From: an endosymbiont of Bathymodiolus septemdierum str. Myojin knoll
GTDB taxonomy: Bacteria; Pseudomonadota; Gammaproteobacteria; PS1; Pseudothioglobaceae
Direction of reading: 5' to 3'
NCBI RefSeq assembly: GCF_001547755.1
Contig: NZ_AP013042.1
Location: forward strand, 1,240,001-1,304,000
Length of the DNA stretch: 64,000 nt
Position numbers and translations under genes: made by a program
Notes under the pieces: model-generated
Databases searched by the model: none
What the model was told of the DNA's origin: nothing
The model's input: only the letters and a program-made list of their open reading frames with translations
Shown here: in pieces, positions 6,824 through 58,740 of the stretch
How the letters are laid out: each line of letters begins with the position of its first letter
How positions within the stretch are numbered: the stretch's first letter is position 1

Positions 6824-7112
6824 CTTCCCTAACGACACACATCAACGGTTGTTCGTTGCTACGGGAAAAATCAATTACTTGCGTTACTTTTGTTTGTGCC
6901 ACATCGTGCGAATAAATACCGCAGACACCTTCGCCATCAATATGAACTTTAAGCATAATTGCGTGTGCGGCTTCTTCAGTTTTGGCAAAAAACTGCATCA
7001 ACACCTCAATAACAAAATCCATTTCGGTATAGTCGTCATTCAACAGCAGCACTTGAAATTGACTGGGCTTTTTGAGTTTCGGCTTTGCCGTTTTGGTCAA
7101 TGTATCGTCCAT
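6819..7112 (-). CDS. clpS: ATP-dependent Clp protease adaptor ClpS
   Basis: Small adaptor (97 residues) that binds N-degron substrates and the ClpA N-domain. The core motif LLNDDYTEMDFV (residues 24-35) includes the Asn-Asp pair that recognises the substrate alpha-amino group. KVHIDGEGVCGIYSHDVAQTK further on holds the conserved ClpA-contact and pocket residues. The N-terminal ~15 residues are Lys-rich and flexible as in homologues. It is the first gene of clpS-clpA-surE and is divergent from guaA. Confidence 0.96.
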   Translation of the reverse strand: MDDTLTKTAKPKLKKPSQFQVLLLNDDYTEMDFVIEVLMQFFAKTEEAAHAIMLKVHIDGEGVCGIYSHDVAQTKVTQVIDFSRSNEQPLMCVVREV

Positions 7113-7182
7113 CTATAGAATCTTTACAAAAGAGTGCTATTTTAACAATGTAATTTTCATTAAAATAGAGTCTTTATTATTT

Positions 7183-8772: not shown

Positions 8773-9231
8773 ATGTGTGATAATCTCATTGACTCTCAAT
8801 GGATGGCATTAGCAATAGAACAAGCATTACTCGCTGAAAAAATAAATGAAGTCCCCGTTGGTGCTGTCCTAATACAAGATGAACAACTCATTGCTAGCGC
8901 TCACAATCAACCTATCAGCAACAACGATCCAACCGCCCATGCGGAAATTCAATTATTACGCAAAGCAGGCGAAAAACTGAACAACTACCGCCTACCCAAT
9001 ACAACCTTATATGTGACTTTAGAACCTTGTACAATGTGCTTAGGTGCAATGGTTCATGCCCGTATAAATCGCATTGTATTCGGTGCTTTTGATGAAAAAA
9101 CAGGTGTTTGTGGTTCCTGCCAAAATCTTGCAAACAGTGATTGCTTCAATCACAACATACAAGTAACAGGCGGCATACTTGCCACCGAGTGTAAAACCTT
9201 ACTACAAAACTTTTTTAAGCGTCGTCGCTAA
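8773..9231 (+). CDS. tadA: tRNA-specific adenosine deaminase TadA
   Basis: Zinc deaminase that makes inosine at the wobble position of tRNA-Arg(ACG). The zinc site is AHAEIQ (His ligand plus catalytic Glu) and LEPCTMCLGA (the two Cys ligands). I take the ATG at 8773, 2 bases after the guaA stop; an in-frame GTG at 8761 inside guaA would only add four residues. That gives 152 residues, about the length of E. coli TadA. It probably forms an operon with guaA. The C-terminus ends FFKRRR, the basic tail typical of the family. Confidence 0.95.
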   Translation: MCDNLIDSQWMALAIEQALLAEKINEVPVGAVLIQDEQLIASAHNQPISNNDPTAHAEIQLLRKAGEKLNNYRLPNTTLYVTLEPCTMCLGAMVHARINRIVFGAFDEKTGVCGSCQNLANSDCFNHNIQVTGGILATECKTLLQNFFKRRR

Positions 9232-40072: not shown

Positions 40073-42037
40073 TTGTCATTAATCCTTGAAGTTGCTATTC
40101 CAGTGCCGTTAAACAAAACTTTTGATTACCTTTGCAATCAGAAGGCAACAGTTGGTGCGCGCGTCAAAGTACCCTTTGGGCGTAAAACAGTCATCGGCGT
40201 GGTGCTGACAATCAAAGACAAAAGCGACTTTGAAAAGTTAAAAAGCGTTGAAGAAGTCGTGGACGACACGCCAATCCTCGACCAGCCTATCCTTGATTTT
40301 TTGCTGTGGTCAGCCAACTACTACCATCACCCAATCGGTGAAGTTATTGCCACTGCTCTACCAAAAAACCTACGCATTGGTAAAGAAGCCATTATTAAAA
40401 AAGTCGTCGGACTGCCTCTAAAAACCAATGAACCCGACTTTGAGCCTACTGAAGAACAAACCAATGCGATTAATACAATCATCGGCGCTTTAGGAAAGTA
40501 CCATGGCTTTTTACTACACGGCGTTACTGGTAGTGGTAAAACCGAAGTCTATTTACGCATCGCTCAAAAAGCCCTCAACCAAGGTAAACAAGTTCTTGTC
40601 CTTGTCCCCGAAATCGGACTCACGCCACAAATGGTCTCACGATTTGAATCCAGACTCAACACCCGCATCGTTTCCATTCATTCACAACGCAACGAAACAC
40701 AAAAATTAGACGCTTATTTAATGGCAAAAAGTGGTGAGGCGGGTGTGGTACTCGGTACTCGTAGTGCGATTTTTGCCCCAATGCCAAACCTAGGTTTAAT
40801 CATCATTGACGAAGAGCATGACAGTTCTTTCAAGCAACAATCCAGTTTTCGTTACTCCGCCAGAGACTTGTCTTTTGTCCGTGCCAAACAAGCCAATATT
40901 CCTGTGGTACTTGGCACTGCAACGCCGTCATTAGAAATGCTAAAACGCATGATAGATAAAAAGATAACGCGTTTAACCCTCGCTAAACGAGCAAATGGGG
41001 CGTTATTGCCAAAAGTGAGTTTGCTTGATATGCGCACCGAAACGGGGGTTGCTTTATCCGCCTTATTGGTTGAAAAAATGAAACAGTATTTGAAAAAAAA
41101 TAAGCAAGTAATGTTGTTCATTAACCGCCGCGGCTATGCCCCCGTGTATTTTTGTACCGAATGCGACTGGAAAGCACAATGCGACCATTGCGACACAGGT
41201 ATGATTTACCATCGCCACATCAACCGTCTAAAATGCCATCATTGTGGCGACGAAAAAATACCTCAAAGCACTTGCCCTGACTGCAATCAAGCCTCATTAG
41301 AAGTCTATGGATACGGCACTGAACGCCTAGAAGAAACCCTCTGTTCTCACTTTCCAGACACAGCAATTATCCGCATTGACCGCGATACCACACGACGCAA
41401 AAAATCCTTTGAGCAACATTTAGAACAAATCAATTCTGGCAAACCGTGCATCATCGTCGGTACACAAATGCTTGCCAAGGGTCACGATTTTTCTAACCTT
41501 GCAATGGTCGGCGTTTTGGACATTGACGGCGGTTTATTATCCAGTAATTTCCGAGCTACAGAATATTTGGCGCAACTCCTCATTCAAGTTTCCGGTCGTG
41601 CTGGACGCAGTGGTGACCAAGGCGAAGTTGCCATTCAAACCCGCTACCCAGAACACCCAATTTTTAACTTCGTACTCTCTAATCGCTACACCCAATACGC
41701 TGGCATATTACTCAAACAACGCAATCAAGCGATGATGCCTCCCTACGCCCAATACGCCCTATTATGTGCCAATGCCAAAGATAAAACGCTCGCTGAAGCC
41801 TTCCTCAACGAAGCCGTCACCCTGCTCAAACGCATCCAAATAGACAGTGTAGAACTCTGGGGGCCCGTTGCCAATACCATTGAGAAAAAATCTGACTACT
41901 ACTACTTCAACCTTTACCTACAATCTAACGATAGAAAAGCATTACACCAACTGCTCTCAACTTTCAATCAACACGCTCATACCTTAAAACTCAAAAACAA
42001 AGTGCGTTGGTATTTAGATATAGACCCAATTGAATAA
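40073..42037 (+). CDS. priA: Primosomal protein N' (replication restart helicase PriA), TTG start
   Basis: Superfamily 2 helicase that reloads the replisome at stalled forks. It has the N-terminal DNA-binding part starting LILEVAIPVPLNKTFDYL, Walker A VTGSGKTEVY (about residue 152), the DEEHDSSFKQ box and the zinc-binding Cys cluster with CTECDWKAQCDHCDTG and CHHCGDEKIPQSTCPDC (residues about 364-407). Length 654, about 80 residues shorter than E. coli PriA (732). The homology starts right after the TTG at 40073, so TTG is used as start codon. Confidence 0.96.
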   Translation: MSLILEVAIPVPLNKTFDYLCNQKATVGARVKVPFGRKTVIGVVLTIKDKSDFEKLKSVEEVVDDTPILDQPILDFLLWSANYYHHPIGEVIATALPKNLRIGKEAIIKKVVGLPLKTNEPDFEPTEEQTNAINTIIGALGKYHGFLLHGVTGSGKTEVYLRIAQKALNQGKQVLVLVPEIGLTPQMVSRFESRLNTRIVSIHSQRNETQKLDAYLMAKSGEAGVVLGTRSAIFAPMPNLGLIIIDEEHDSSFKQQSSFRYSARDLSFVRAKQANIPVVLGTATPSLEMLKRMIDKKITRLTLAKRANGALLPKVSLLDMRTETGVALSALLVEKMKQYLKKNKQVMLFINRRGYAPVYFCTECDWKAQCDHCDTGMIYHRHINRLKCHHCGDEKIPQSTCPDCNQASLEVYGYGTERLEETLCSHFPDTAIIRIDRDTTRRKKSFEQHLEQINSGKPCIIVGTQMLAKGHDFSNLAMVGVLDIDGGLLSSNFRATEYLAQLLIQVSGRAGRSGDQGEVAIQTRYPEHPIFNFVLSNRYTQYAGILLKQRNQAMMPPYAQYALLCANAKDKTLAEAFLNEAVTLLKRIQIDSVELWGPVANTIEKKSDYYYFNLYLQSNDRKALHQLLSTFNQHAHTLKLKNKVRWYLDIDPIE

Positions 42038-42112
42038 CTCGTAATAAAGTTTATAAGATTTAAATATGCCCCTATAATAGTCAATTCATCAAAATAGTAA
42101 AAAGAAAAACAA

Positions 42113-42166
42113 ATGAACCACTGGGCAAAATTAAGTATTGAATTTGCAAACCAACGCAATTATTAA
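42113..42166 (+). CDS. Seventeen-codon ORF, possibly the stump of a lost gene
   Basis: Encodes MNHWAKLSIEFANQRNY then TAA. It has a TATAAT at 42073-42078 and an A/G-rich stretch before the ATG, so it may be translated. It looks like the first residues of a larger protein, cut off by the stop, rather than like a leader peptide. I cannot name the family. It lies directly before the FRG-domain gene and may share its transcript. Confidence 0.3.
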   Translation: MNHWAKLSIEFANQRNY

Positions 42167-42204
42167 ATCAATTACTCTGGCTCCTTGATTTTAATCCGCA
42201 TTCT

Positions 42205-43593
42205 ATGACAACAAACAACGAAAAAAATATTAAAACTGTCTCTGATTTTCAAAAGCAAATTTTGAAATTAAAAGGTAGTTTTGCCTATCGCGGACAAGGC
42301 GACAAAACCTGGGGAGTTGAGTCTGGTGCATATAGACGCTTAGAGGGAAATGTCAATCAAGACCTAATTAAATACACCGAAAATATTATCAACCAAGCAA
42401 AAAACTACACGCAAGAGATTGCCAGCAATAACGACCTTGAACTTTTGGCAGAATTGCAGCATTATGGGTGCGCCACGCCTTTGATTGATTTTTCCTTGAA
42501 TGCTTTAACGGCTTTGTGGTTTGCCTGTGAAGACACGAAAGAAGACGGCAAAGTTGTTTGTTTGAAGGTTGACGATAAAGCGCGTTTTTTAGAAGTATCC
42601 GGCGAAGATAAAAACAAGTTATTAAGCAGTATTTTATCTTTGTCAATTAGAGATGGTATAACATACACCCTTGGAAAGTGGCAACCACCCTTAAACAACA
42701 GCCGTATTGTTAAACAAGACAGCCTCTTTATATTCACAGCAAGTGGCGAGATTAAAGACAATGAATTTGAAGCGATACTCATCATTGACAAAGACTCAAA
42801 GTTAACCATTAGAGGCGAACTTGAGCAACTTTGTGGCATAACACAAACCAGCATCTACCCAGATTTTTATGGCTTTGCCACCAGTAATAGTGCAGTTAAG
42901 ACTTATCGAGAACCAACCGTTGAGGAACTTATCAAGCGAGCCGATAAAGACTACCAACAAGGCGAATATAAAAAAGCCATTGAGTATTATGAATTGGCAC
43001 TGGCAAGTGATTTAAAAACCTATGGTGAGGCGCATCCTAGTGTGGCAACTTGTCGCAATAATTTAGGCATGGCGTGGGAATCGCTAGGCGAATATAAAAA
43101 AGCCATTGAGTATTATGAATTGGCACTGGCAAGTGATTTAAAAACCTATGGTGAGGCGCATCCTAGTGTGGCAACTCGTCGCAATAATTTAGGCATGGCG
43201 TGGCAATCGCTAGGCGAATATAAAAAAGCCATTGAGTATCTTGAATTGGCACTGGCAAGTGATTTAAAAACCTATGGTGAGGCGCATCCTAGTGTGGCAA
43301 CTTGTCGCAATAATTTAGGCGTGGCGTGGCAATCGCTAGGCGAATATAAAAAAGCCATTGAGTATTATGAATTGGCACTGGCAAGTAATTTAAAAACCTA
43401 TGGTGAGGCGCATCCTGATGTGGCAAATCGTCGCAATAATTTAGGCATGGCGTGGCAATCGTTAGGCGAATATAAAAAAGCCATTGAGTATTATGAATTG
43501 GCACTGGCTACGCTTCAGAAAACTTTGGGTGATGAGCATCCTACCACTAAACAGGTGTCTGAAAATTTAGCAAATGTCTTAACGCACCTATGA
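42205..43593 (+). CDS. FRG-domain protein with C-terminal TPR repeats
   Basis: 462 residues in two parts. Residues about 10-110 match the FRG domain: FAYRGQGDKTWGVESGAYRR contains the YRG motif, and ELQHYGCATPLIDFSLNALT holds the conserved QHYG.PT.L.D-type core. Residues 253-462 are five TPR units of exactly 42 residues each (kinesin-light-chain style, with EYKKAIEYYELAL). There is no signal peptide. FRG proteins have no agreed biochemical function and are often found in accessory islands. The TPR part suggests protein-protein binding. It sits alone between priA and bioA. Confidence 0.8.
   Translation: MTTNNEKNIKTVSDFQKQILKLKGSFAYRGQGDKTWGVESGAYRRLEGNVNQDLIKYTENIINQAKNYTQEIASNNDLELLAELQHYGCATPLIDFSLNALTALWFACEDTKEDGKVVCLKVDDKARFLEVSGEDKNKLLSSILSLSIRDGITYTLGKWQPPLNNSRIVKQDSLFIFTASGEIKDNEFEAILIIDKDSKLTIRGELEQLCGITQTSIYPDFYGFATSNSAVKTYREPTVEELIKRADKDYQQGEYKKAIEYYELALASDLKTYGEAHPSVATCRNNLGMAWESLGEYKKAIEYYELALASDLKTYGEAHPSVATRRNNLGMAWQSLGEYKKAIEYLELALASDLKTYGEAHPSVATCRNNLGVAWQSLGEYKKAIEYYELALASNLKTYGEAHPDVANRRNNLGMAWQSLGEYKKAIEYYELALATLQKTLGDEHPTTKQVSENLANVLTHL
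42961..43590 (+). repeat. Five tandem 126-bp TPR-coding repeats
   Basis: Units start at 42961, 43087, 43213, 43339 and 43465, an exact 126-base period. Units 1-4 differ from each other by only a few bases each; unit 5 keeps the first half and diverges in the second. Such near-identity implies recent duplication or gene conversion. Confidence 0.95.
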
Positions 43594-43701: not shown

Positions 43702-44934
43702 TTATTTAGTTACTTTTTTTATAGCGTTTGTTAACAATAACAACTCATCATCAGTAATGGTAAACGCTGGCATAGTGTAGAGTAGTTTGCCGTAAGGTCG
43801 CAGCCAAACGCCGCCCTCAAGCAGCTGGTTTTGAACTTTTTCTACCTCAATTTCAGCAACCATTTCTACCACGCCGATGGCACCCAAAATTCGCACACTG
43901 GCAACTTTGTCATTTTCACTGAGAGGGGATAAATGGGTGTAGAAATGTTTTTCTATGCGGGCAATATTGTCTTGCCATGGTTCGTTTAACAGCAATTCAA
44001 TGCTGGCATTCGCGACGGCGCAAGCGAGCGGGTTTGCCATAAAAGTTGGTCCGTGCATTAGCGTACCGACTGTTGTCGCGACTTTATCACTGGTGAGCGT
44101 GGCAGCGAGCGTCATATAACCGCCTGTGAGTGCCTTACCAAGGCAGAGAATATCGGGCTCAACATCAACATATTCTAAGGCGAACAATTCACCTGTTCTA
44201 CCAAAACCAGTGGCAATTTCATCTAAGATAAACAACACTTTGTATTGTTCGCACAATGCTTTTGCGTGGCTGAGGTATTGGGGATTGTAGATGCGCATTC
44301 CACCTGCGCCCTGCACCACAGGCTCTAAAATCATGGCGGCAATTGTATTAGCGCTTTTACTTAAAGTTTGCTCTAAATCTTCAAGCGCTTCGTCCATTGC
44401 TACTATGGATGGACTTTTGACAAAAACTTGCTGTGCTAATGTGTCGCCGAATAAGTGGTGCATGCCATTTTCAGGGTCGCATAGACTCATCGCGCCAAAA
44501 GTATCGCCATGATAACCACCATAAATGGTGATAAATTTTTGCTTATCGGTTTTTCCTTGCTTATGCCAATATTGCAATGCCATTTTAAGGGCGACTTCAA
44601 CGGCTATAGAACCCGAATCAGAAAAAAATACTTTGGTTAAATTATCGGGGGTAATGTTAATTAATGTTTTTGCAAGATCAATTGCAGGTTGATGCGTCAG
44701 CCCGCCAAACATCACATGTGACATTTTTTTCAACTGTTCGGTAATCGCTTGATTTAATACAGGATTATTGTATCCGTGAATCACGCTCCACCACGAACTC
44801 ATACCATCAATTACCTGCTTTCCATTCTTTAAAACCAAGTAAACACCTTGGGCAGATTCAACTAAATGCGTGGGAACCTCATTGGGAATCTTAGCATACG
44901 GATGCCAAATATGCGAATTGTCAAATGCATCCAT
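43702..44934 (-). CDS. bioA: Adenosylmethionine-8-amino-7-oxononanoate aminotransferase
   Basis: PLP enzyme of biotin synthesis that makes 7,8-diaminopelargonate, using SAM as amino donor. It starts IWHPYAKIP after MDAFDNSH, has DGMSSWWSVIHGYNNP, and the PLP Lys in LGKALTGGYMTL (about residue 275). Start taken at ATG 44934; the in-frame start at 44979 is inside gph and adds unrelated residues. 410 residues. A TATAAA lies 9 bases before the ATG inside the gph end. No other biotin genes are near. Confidence 0.95.
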   Translation of the reverse strand: MDAFDNSHIWHPYAKIPNEVPTHLVESAQGVYLVLKNGKQVIDGMSSWWSVIHGYNNPVLNQAITEQLKKMSHVMFGGLTHQPAIDLAKTLINITPDNLTKVFFSDSGSIAVEVALKMALQYWHKQGKTDKQKFITIYGGYHGDTFGAMSLCDPENGMHHLFGDTLAQQVFVKSPSIVAMDEALEDLEQTLSKSANTIAAMILEPVVQGAGGMRIYNPQYLSHAKALCEQYKVLFILDEIATGFGRTGELFALEYVDVEPDILCLGKALTGGYMTLAATLTSDKVATTVGTLMHGPTFMANPLACAVANASIELLLNEPWQDNIARIEKHFYTHLSPLSENDKVASVRILGAIGVVEMVAEIEVEKVQNQLLEGGVWLRPYGKLLYTMPAFTITDDELLLLTNAIKKVTK

Positions 44935-44944
44935 AACGGTAGTT

Positions 44945-45613
44945 TTATAGGTATTCCTTAAGTTCAACCATAGAATCAATCACCATATCTGGATTGGCAT
45001 CGCGGATATCAACGCCGTGATTATAACCATAAGACATACAAATAATATCAAATCCAGCTGCACGAGAGGCTTTAACATCACTAATAGAATCGCCTAACAT
45101 CAGTGAGTCTTCTGGACTAATGTCAAAAAATTCTGCCGAATGCAGCAAAGGCAATGGGTCAGGTTTTTTCTTTGCCAAAGTGTCGCCAGAAACCACGATG
45201 CCGAAATAATCAAAAATCCCTAAATCTTTCAAAATAGGCAAAGTAAATTGCGCTGCTTTATTGGTCACACACCCCAAGGTATAGCCTTGTGCTTTCATAT
45301 AATCCAAGCCCTCTTGTACACCCGGATACAGCGACGAGCGACCTGTAGTATTTTTGGCATATAATGCCAAGAAAATTGGATAAGCCTTGTCATAATCTTC
45401 TTGATTAACTGTGCCTTCTAACTCACCTGTTAACGAACGCTCTACTAACTTAGGCACGCCATTGCCTACCCACTGACGCACTTTCGCTTCGCCCCATTTT
45501 TTGCGTCCCATTGCCAACATCATTTCATCAACGCAATATGCCAAATCTGGCACACTATCAACCAAAGTGCCATCAACATCAATCATAATAAGTTTTGGGT
45601 TAAATTTTTTCAT
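44945..45613 (-). CDS. gph: Phosphoglycolate phosphatase (HAD family)
   Basis: HAD hydrolase, 222 residues. Motif I is DVDGTLVDSVPDL (residues 12-24), motif II CVTNKAAQ, and motif III-IV KKKPDPLPLL and LGDSISDV. The DSVPDL continuation and length fit Gph, which clears 2-phosphoglycolate made by Rubisco or DNA repair. In an autotrophic sulfur oxidiser with a Calvin cycle it would be needed for photorespiratory-type salvage; this role is inferred. A clear AAGGA Shine-Dalgarno precedes the ATG. It is divergent from proC. Confidence 0.88.
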   Translation of the reverse strand: MKKFNPKLIMIDVDGTLVDSVPDLAYCVDEMMLAMGRKKWGEAKVRQWVGNGVPKLVERSLTGELEGTVNQEDYDKAYPIFLALYAKNTTGRSSLYPGVQEGLDYMKAQGYTLGCVTNKAAQFTLPILKDLGIFDYFGIVVSGDTLAKKKPDPLPLLHSAEFFDISPEDSLMLGDSISDVKASRAAGFDIICMSYGYNHGVDIRDANPDMVIDSMVELKEYL

Positions 45614-58053: not shown

Positions 58054-58740
58054 TTAAGGTGTGGAAATTCGATTGATAATTATACTGTTATTTGTGAGCA
58101 TTGCCCAATACTTTCCTACTAAGTAAAAGTTAATAAAAAAAGCTTCAATAATAATTTTCCCCATACAGGGTAATCTGTATTTAAAAGCATCCTCCGCAGA
58201 GCAGCTAAGTGCATTTATTTTAAAACCTTTTGCCATCATTATGGCGCGTGCCATGTGGTAACGATTGGTTATCAATAAAACCTGTTGACTCTTGTTGCTG
58301 TACAAACCATAGAAATTCTTTAGATTTTCTAATGTATGTTTGGATTCTTGCTCTAAAAATATTCTATTATCCTCAACGCCCAAATCTTTTAAAACCTTCT
58401 TTCCTGCCTCTGATTCAGTAATATTTGCATTATTAGTCATCCCTCCTAGAATATAAACATTACTATCAGAATTTTTACCCAACATCCATGAAGCGCGTTT
58501 TAATCTACTACGGTATTCAGCATCTGGGATATCGTTGTCCAATTTTTTTCCCAACACCAGTAATACACCTGTATCACTAATACAATAGTCTTTAGATTTT
58601 GCAATAACAAGCACATATAAGAATGAAACTACCAAACTAAAACCAACTGTTATCAAAATAACAACCATTGATAAGATTAAGATTAAGATTAAGATTAAGA
58701 TTAAGATTAAGATTAAATGTTTATCATAATCAATTTTCAC
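58054..58740 (-). CDS. YdcF/ElyC-type DUF218 membrane protein with a Leu-Ile repeat helix
   Basis: 228 residues. The N-terminal helix is an unusual run of alternating Leu-Ile (residues 9-23) coded by the (GATTAA)7 microsatellite, then a second hydrophobic segment to about residue 47. The DUF218 domain follows, with VLLVLGKKLDNDIPD, ILGGMTNN and LLITNRYHMARAIMMAKG, motifs of SanA/ElyC/YdcF proteins linked to envelope integrity. The gene ends 22 bases before the ACP gene and starts 1 base after the glycosyltransferase gene. Confidence 0.75.
   Translation of the reverse strand: MKIDYDKHLILILILILILILILSMVVILITVGFSLVVSFLYVLVIAKSKDYCISDTGVLLVLGKKLDNDIPDAEYRSRLKRASWMLGKNSDSNVYILGGMTNNANITESEAGKKVLKDLGVEDNRIFLEQESKHTLENLKNFYGLYSNKSQQVLLITNRYHMARAIMMAKGFKINALSCSAEDAFKYRLPCMGKIIIEAFFINFYLVGKYWAMLTNNSIIINRISTP
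58675..58716 (+). repeat. (GATTAA)7 hexanucleotide microsatellite
   Basis: Seven perfect copies inside the start of the DUF218 gene. The unit is 6 bases, so slippage would change the length of the Leu-Ile helix by two residues per unit without breaking the frame. Confidence 0.97.

What the first reader, a model, noticed from the sequence alone, without database searches (positions are those of the whole stretch)
42205..43593. FRG-domain protein with freshly duplicated TPR units in an otherwise housekeeping region
Five 42-residue units with an exact 126-base period; four are nearly identical at the DNA level. Recent expansion in a ligand-binding repeat is typical of genes under arms-race pressure. 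FRG domains occur in many accessory and suspected defence loci but have no agreed activity. A lone FRG-TPR gene between priA and bioA is a candidate defence or host-interaction protein.
Basis: partly seen in the sequence, partly recalled or inferred. Interest (0 to 1): 0.6.

Follow-up and report, generated by a model that had tools for sequence, protein, structure and literature searches.

The report
Orphan FRG-TPR defence-type gene
A mussel-symbiont genome carries, in a gene-swapping spot beside the stump of a lost restriction enzyme, a protein that joins a domain resembling ADP-ribosyltransferases to freshly copied binding repeats; relatives elsewhere often sit next to known antiviral genes, so it is probably an antiviral protein rather than a housekeeping one.

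Summary
In detail: a 462-residue ORF (42205-43593), FRG domain first, then five 42-residue TPR units of exact 126-bp period; units 1-4 differ pairwise by 2-9 of 126 bases, unit 5 by 45-48. The setting is not simply housekeeping: 42107-42164 is the first 17 codons of a lost Tsp45I-type restriction gene, and none of the 8 genus-mates whose priA-bioA gap can be read has FRG there; their gaps run from 11 to 4,187 bp. FRG genes occur in 5 of 12 genus genomes, elsewhere.

New here: the FRG part resembles ADP-ribosyltransferase-superfamily folds (the 50 listed solved structures, Z 5.0-7.0; Foldseek alone is weak). In relatives, FRG-TPR lies just downstream, same strand, of TIR, type I or IIG restriction, or Pycsar-cyclase genes in 12 of 37 loci.

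Best reading: a cytosolic immune-type protein, TPR array as sensor, FRG as NAD+-using effector, left alone here after a restriction system was lost. Activity, trigger and phage protection are inferred. Diversifying selection on the repeats is suggested, not significant. Repeat-number polymorphism within the species could not be tested.

The parts
42205..43593 (+). FRG-TPR gene, 462 aa
   Evidence: PADLOC candidate family PDC-S15, 8.6e-31, residues 5-226
42205..42900 (+). FRG region, residues 1-232, predicted ART-like fold; R29, S97, Q171 conserved in the family
   Evidence: Pfam FRG core is residues 26-114 = 42280-42546
42919..43590 (+). TPR superhelix, residues 239-462, kinesin-light-chain/LGN type
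   Evidence: predicted helices; VIA-align Z 26.5 to LGN, 25.4 to KLC1 TPR
42960..43463 (+). four nearly identical 126-bp units (42960, 43086, 43212, 43338)
43464..43589 (+). fifth, diverged unit
   Evidence: 45-48 of 126 bases differ from units 1-4
42107..42164 (+). stump of a Tsp45I-type restriction endonuclease gene: upstream bases and 17 codons (MNHWAKLSIEFANQRNY), then a stop
   Evidence: 91% over 58 bp to the start of the genes in G059 and G057, 84% in G050; the G059 gene is PF06300 Tsp45I, 6.9e-120
42165..42191 (+). 27-bp motif at the deletion joint, repeated at two other places of the genome
42050..42078 (+). promoter-like site TTTATA-17-TATAAT upstream of stump and FRG gene
   Evidence: 10 of 12 consensus matches; 9 sites found in the stretch against 5.6 expected, so weak
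40073..42037 (+). priA (left neighbour)
43702..44979 (-). bioA-type class III aminotransferase (right neighbour, convergent)

Best explanation
A stand-alone, cytosolic, defence-type protein. The C-terminal TPR superhelix (five full units) is the sensor or docking arm: it binds a polypeptide that appears or changes on phage infection. The N-terminal FRG domain is an ART-fold effector that then acts on NAD+ (hydrolysis, or transfer of ADP-ribose to a target) and stops growth of the infected cell. The array grows and is reshuffled by recombination between nearly identical units, which changes binding specificity. The gene sits in a cargo site behind priA that once held a Tsp45I restriction-modification system; deletion of that system left 17 codons and an orphan FRG-TPR gene. 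Shown: domains, repeats, stump, variable site, predicted folds, defence neighbours of relatives. Inferred: NAD+ chemistry, trigger, phage protection, and that FRG-TPR and the Tsp45I system once worked together.
For: PADLOC PDC-S15 match 8.6e-31. Site: priA-bioA distance 11, 17, 19, 59, 146, 224, 597 and 4,187 bp in 8 genus-mates against 1,670 here, with ParD in G056 and a 993-aa ORF in G057; in G060 priA is followed by a Sacsin/TmtA-type gene. Tsp45I stump 40 bp upstream, no other copy in the genome. In relatives the nearest upstream same-strand ORF is a defence gene in 12 of 37 loci (33 had any upstream ORF): TIR in L106-L109 (44-111 bp), type I methylase-specificity fusion in L120, L121, L124 (overlap to 30 bp), type IIG in L110, L112, L113, L123 (66-527 bp), Pycsar cyclase in L111 (534 bp). 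FRG also in a P2-type phage beside a retron-type reverse transcriptase and in the same arrangement in both E. coli prophages looked at; that allele is in 59 of 5,426 E. coli genomes. ART-like fold; R29 in 37 of 37 rows that cover it, S/T97 and Q171 in 38 of 38. TPR behind FRG in 34 of 38 relatives incl. the window. Fungal immune receptors use highly alike TPR units in the same way (PMC4986451, passages seen).
Against: No experiment. Foldseek alone finds no PDB match below E 0.001 (best 9.2e-3), and Z 5-7 is in the range the tool calls middling. No conserved glutamate as in classic R-S-E ARTs. In the mussel-symbiont genus the immediate neighbours of most FRG genes are not defence genes: TRAP-transporter genes in G058 (both copies) and G051, xth and trmB in G056 and near one G052 copy. 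Several sponge-type loci have ABC-transporter or metabolic genes directly upstream (L118, L119, L128, L129, read by eye). The 12 loci are perhaps five independent arrangements, as sister species share them. Selection test not significant.
Confidence: 0.5

Rival explanations
1. Symbiosis factor: a TPR-bearing, eukaryote-like protein that acts on the animal host, its repeats matching a host ligand.
For: Most of the 41 genome loci found are Poribacteria and Caldilineaceae MAGs, which I recall as sponge symbionts, plus named Bathymodiolus symbionts; KLC/LGN-type TPRs.
Against: The N-terminus shows no obvious signal peptide by eye; relatives with TPR also come from Methanogenium and a marine Rhodobiaceae MAG; defence neighbours; FRG without TPR in P2-type prophages and enterobacterial plasmids. 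No secretion system was searched for.
Confidence: 0.18
2. Toxin half of an addiction or guard module: FRG arrests the cell when a neighbouring restriction system fails, so it protects the module and not primarily the cell.
For: Position just behind restriction genes in relatives and behind a restriction stump here; ART-like fold.
Against: Here the gene persists without the system and with no recognisable antitoxin in the gap; the upstream partner varies between TIR, restriction and cyclase genes.
Confidence: 0.15
3. Decaying passenger: an acquired gene without present function, the repeat array expanding by neutral slippage or recombination.
For: FRG genes are broken in G056 (two ORFs) and as remnants in G041 and G042 (stop codons); the excess of nonsynonymous differences is not significant.
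Against: The window copy is open over 462 codons with a good predicted structure (pLDDT 88.9) and family-invariant residues intact.
Confidence: 0.12

Closest known systems
FRG domain family (Pfam PF08867)
   Same: FRG core, 65.5 bits, cut-off 25
   Different: Carries a KLC-type TPR array of nearly identical units; the Pfam model covers only the 94-residue core
PDC-S15, a phage-defence candidate of PADLOC
   Same: Residues 5-226 match PDLC04938 at 8.6e-31, and 14 further PDC-S15 models at E up to 1
   Different: The TPR array lies outside the matched stretch; PDC-S15 is a candidate, not a tested system as far as I could see (only one paper names it, listing seen)
ADP-ribosyltransferase superfamily (Rhs Tre toxins, cholera/LT A1, Tpt1/KptA, Scabin)
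   Same: Predicted fold, Z 5.0-7.0 in the 50 listed entries; range starts put R29 at position 7 of cholera/LT A1 and 9 of pertussis S1, the catalytic arginine as I recall it
   Different: Invariant Gln171 and no conserved Glu; sequence identity 5-14%
Fungal NLR proteins with TPR repeats of high internal conservation
   Same: N-terminal effector part, C-terminal TPR units over 85% alike across more than 100 residues (PMC4986451, passages; window)
   Different: No NACHT or NB-ARC domain was matched; bacterial; no population data
Tsp45I restriction enzyme (PF06300)
   Same: 58-bp stump 91% identical to a gene whose product matches PF06300
   Different: Only 17 codons remain; not functional

Membership tests
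FRG domain (PF08867) | score above Pfam gathering cut-off | tested here: met
   65.5 bits against 25
PDC-S15 (PADLOC candidate) | match to the profile over most of its length | tested here: met
   PDLC04938 positions 41-264 of 276, 8.6e-31
PDC-S15 (PADLOC candidate) | protects against phage | not testable with these tools
   needs plaque assays
ART superfamily | ART fold | tested here: inconclusive
   the 50 listed entries are ART-superfamily by title or recall, Z 5.0-7.0; 0 of 996 chains reach Z 8; Foldseek best E 9.2e-3
ART superfamily | NAD-binding arginine on the first core strand | tested here: met
   R29 on strand 26-31, present in 37 of 37 rows that cover it; equation with the toxin arginine rests on range starts and recall
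classic R-S-E class of ARTs | conserved catalytic glutamate | tested here: not met
   no Glu conserved in 32 or more of 38 rows; Q171 in 38 of 38. Not filed as an R-S-E ART; the wider superfamily has members without that Glu (recalled)
NAD+-consuming enzyme | uses NAD+ | not testable with these tools
   proposed for Frg in PMC9503650 (passages)
KLC-type TPR (PF13374/PF13424) | 42-residue TPR units above cut-off | tested here: met
   143.8 and 157.3 bits, cut-offs 27.5 and 30.1; Z 25.4 to KLC1
NLR/STAND receptors | NTPase core between effector and repeats | tested here: not met
   no such Pfam family among the best 25 of 34 listed; the model runs from FRG straight into TPR helices

The most novel reading that the evidence does not exclude
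FRG-TPR is an exchangeable effector-sensor module that bacteria attach behind quite different alarm or attack genes (TIR, type I and IIG restriction, Pycsar cyclase), with its TPR array rewritten by recombination between units, a bacterial counterpart of the repeat-shuffling fungal NLRs without an NTPase. It can outlive the partner system, as in this window, and its ART-like domain uses Gln instead of the usual Glu, which hints at an unusual NAD+ reaction.
Probability: 0.25. Interest if true: 0.75.

Novelty: new variant of a known kind. Interest (0 to 1): 0.5.

Why it matters
FRG domains are widespread and functionally open. A recurrent FRG-TPR architecture, repeatedly next to restriction, TIR and cyclase genes in at least two phyla, gives a concrete, testable hypothesis (TPR-gated ART-fold effector), and the near-identical repeats give a place to look for rapid receptor evolution in bacteria that live in animals and meet location-specific phages (PMC12927875, passages).

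Tried and rejected
Ordinary core gene: rejected, absent from the site in 8 of 8 readable genus-mates and FRG above cut-off in only 7 of 83 family genomes (8 of 83 at E 0.001).

Recent transfer from sponge symbionts: not shown. The best local match outside the genus is 40% (L106), but the tree leaves the window row unplaced on a long branch, and a clade with its genus-mates is not rejected (AU p 0.234).

Positive selection on units: 9 of 10 variable columns nonsynonymous, P 0.13-0.29; 3 of 7 variable residues fall on the seven hypervariable TPR positions of PMC1261162 (passages), P 0.077; adjacent-unit pN/pS 3.9 here but 0.26-1.80 in eight relatives. Not significant. The line 'P(all 10 nonsyn)' printed does not apply, as one column is synonymous.

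Neighbour scan: 102 of 136 ORFs within 3 kb of FRG genes in 30 loci match 198 PADLOC families at 1e-10, 102 of 102 ORFs 6 kb or more away match 50. Near ORFs are longer (mean 387 against 270 aa) and families are not genes, so this is a weak control; far ORFs also hit AriA and HEC families.

Attachment-site duplication at priA: seen in G046 (66 nt, 76%) but not in the window. Own-genome paralogues: none for FRG. Viral collection: the single-sequence scan found nothing, the alignment scan 2 loci. PDB by sequence: no match. Rows left out of A2: 6 of 43 loci (L108, L112, L144-L146, L148: broken, cut, short or duplicate). Rap-type and other helical TPR hits were not followed.

Full report
What was checked. 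The ORF, its FRG domain and its TPR array are as described: 42205-43593, 462 aa, units of exactly 126 bp at 42960, 43086, 43212, 43338 and 43464; the first four differ pairwise by 2-9 bases, the fifth by 45-48. The array is by far the strongest tandem repeat of the window (score 1021 against 53-90).

Where it is. The window is one stretch of a 1,469,434-bp single-contig genome. Two genomes of its genus are identifiable: contig G058:C130 (4,719 bp) and G051:C40 (4,789 bp) have the lengths and FRG genes of records named as symbionts of Bathymodiolus sp. 5 South and B. azoricus. From its size I recall the window's genome as the B. septemdierum symbiont; this was not tested.

The site. priA and bioA are convergent neighbours in the genus. 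The distance between the two C-terminal matches is 11 bp in G054, 17 in G051, 19 in G058, 59 in G059, 146 in G055, 224 in G052, 597 in G056, 4,187 in G057 and 1,670 here. G056 has a ParD antitoxin gene in the gap, G057 a 993-aa ORF. In G053 and G060 the two genes are not adjacent in the assembly; G060 has a Sacsin/TmtA-type gene behind priA. G050 gave no priA match. So this is a cargo site. In other genera of the family a gene of about 312 aa often lies between the two (seen in 7 of the stretches read), and G046 adds further cargo with a second copy of the priA end.

The stump. Bases 42107-42164 match, at 91%, the start of an intact 258-aa gene in G059 and of a gene cut by its contig end in G057, and at 84% a broken copy in G050. 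The G059 protein is a Tsp45I-type restriction enzyme (PF06300, 6.9e-120) followed by an N6/N4 methylase. In the window only 17 codons remain and the genome holds no other copy. The next 27 bases recur at two other places of the genome; the FRG ATG follows 40 bp after the last stump base. A promoter-like site lies upstream of both (weak).

Distribution. FRG is found in 8 of 83 family genomes at E 0.001 (7 above the Pfam cut-off): 5 of the 12 genus genomes and 3 of another genus, where G041 and G042 are remnants with stop codons and G036 is below cut-off; none of 14 control genomes has it. A scan of genome contigs with the genus alignment gave 41 loci, mainly Poribacteria and Caldilineaceae MAGs, which I recall as sponge symbionts, but also a Methanogenium and a Rhodobiaceae MAG. 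34 of 38 proteins (window and 37 of 43 loci) carry TPRs behind FRG, some as DNA-level tandem arrays of 102-bp units; one G052 gene has 135-bp units, 7.1 copies.

Neighbours. In 12 of 37 relatives (33 with any upstream ORF) the nearest upstream ORF on the same strand is a defence gene: TIR proteins in L106-L109, type I methylase-specificity fusions in L120, L121 and L124, type IIG enzymes in L110, L112, L113 and L123, and a Pycsar cyclase in L111 (2.3e-102). The 12 are probably about five independent arrangements. Not every upstream ORF was searched: those not named here or were read by eye or only in the pooled scan. Others have ABC-transporter or metabolic genes there (L118, L119, L128, L129, by eye). 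In the genus itself the direct neighbours are mostly not defence genes: TRAP-transporter genes in G058 (twice) and G051; xth and trmB in G056 and, with a VapBC-like pair read by eye, in G052; the second G052 gene lies about 3 kb from a pair that I read as McrBC-like (PADLOC supports only the first, REase_II 3.2e-15); one G058 copy is 1.9 kb from a HaeIII-type system. A P2-type phage has an FRG protein beside a retron-type reverse transcriptase (RT_VI, 1.1e-105); the allele is in 59 of 5,426 E. coli genomes, and both regions read show the same arrangement between portal and replication genes.

Structure. The whole protein is predicted well (pLDDT 88.9); the TPR part matches LGN and KLC1 TPRs at Z 24-26 and the Podospora 'nearly identical TPR-like repeats' proteins at Z 21. 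The FRG part alone (pLDDT 85.9) gives, among 996 aligned chains, 54 with Z 5 or more and none with Z 8; the 50 entries listed are, by title or recall, all of the ART superfamily. Foldseek alone is weak (best E 9.2e-3) and also lists unrelated folds. R29, S/T97 and Q171 are kept throughout; no glutamate is. This agrees with the published placing of Frg in the ART superfamily as a possible NADase (PMC9503650, passages; the primary source was not held).

Repeats. 9 of 10 variable columns among units 1-4 change the residue, and 3 of 7 variable residues fall on hypervariable ligand-facing TPR positions (PMC1261162, passages), but neither is significant (P 0.13-0.29 and 0.077). Similar highly alike TPR units, with unit-number polymorphism and diversifying selection, are documented for fungal NLRs (PMC4986451, passages).

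Verdict. Probably a defence-type effector-sensor protein, left beside the stump of a restriction system. Printed work on FRG-TPR as such was not found in two searches of the open library ('FRG domain', 8 papers; 'PDC-S15', 1 paper; listings seen), which is a limited test of novelty.

Noticed in passing
G046:C73 (locus L094: 3110-3175 and 4183-4248); G076:C105:3969-4106: A second copy of the end of priA lies beyond cargo genes (66 nt, 76% in G046; a 46-residue match in G076), as if cargo enters at the 3' end of priA with partial duplication.
   Followed up: partly
L091 (G052): 7010-7126 and 8845-8961, further pieces to 9631: Part of xth is duplicated (97% over 117 nt) around a 505-aa TPR gene next to an FRG-TPR gene, a similar pattern at another cargo site.
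   Followed up: partly
window 42165-42191; also G000:C1:9573-9597 and 325034-325058: A 27-bp motif recurs three times in this genome and in none of the 11 other genus genomes at up to 3 mismatches over 25 bases.
   Followed up: partly
window 58672-58716: A perfect 6-bp repeat (TAAGAT, 7.5 copies) lies within the start of a minus-strand ORF (58054-58740) and encodes a run of Leu-Ile; a length change in this run keeps the frame.
   Followed up: no
loci L154-L156 (G041, G042, G036): FRG remnants lie just upstream of what looks like bioF in another genus of the family, two of them with stop codons.
   Followed up: no
L127, L130, L131, L137, L142 and others: Several FRG-TPR proteins end in a Gly-rich tail (GNAGNVGNFGG-like) shared across phyla.
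   Followed up: no
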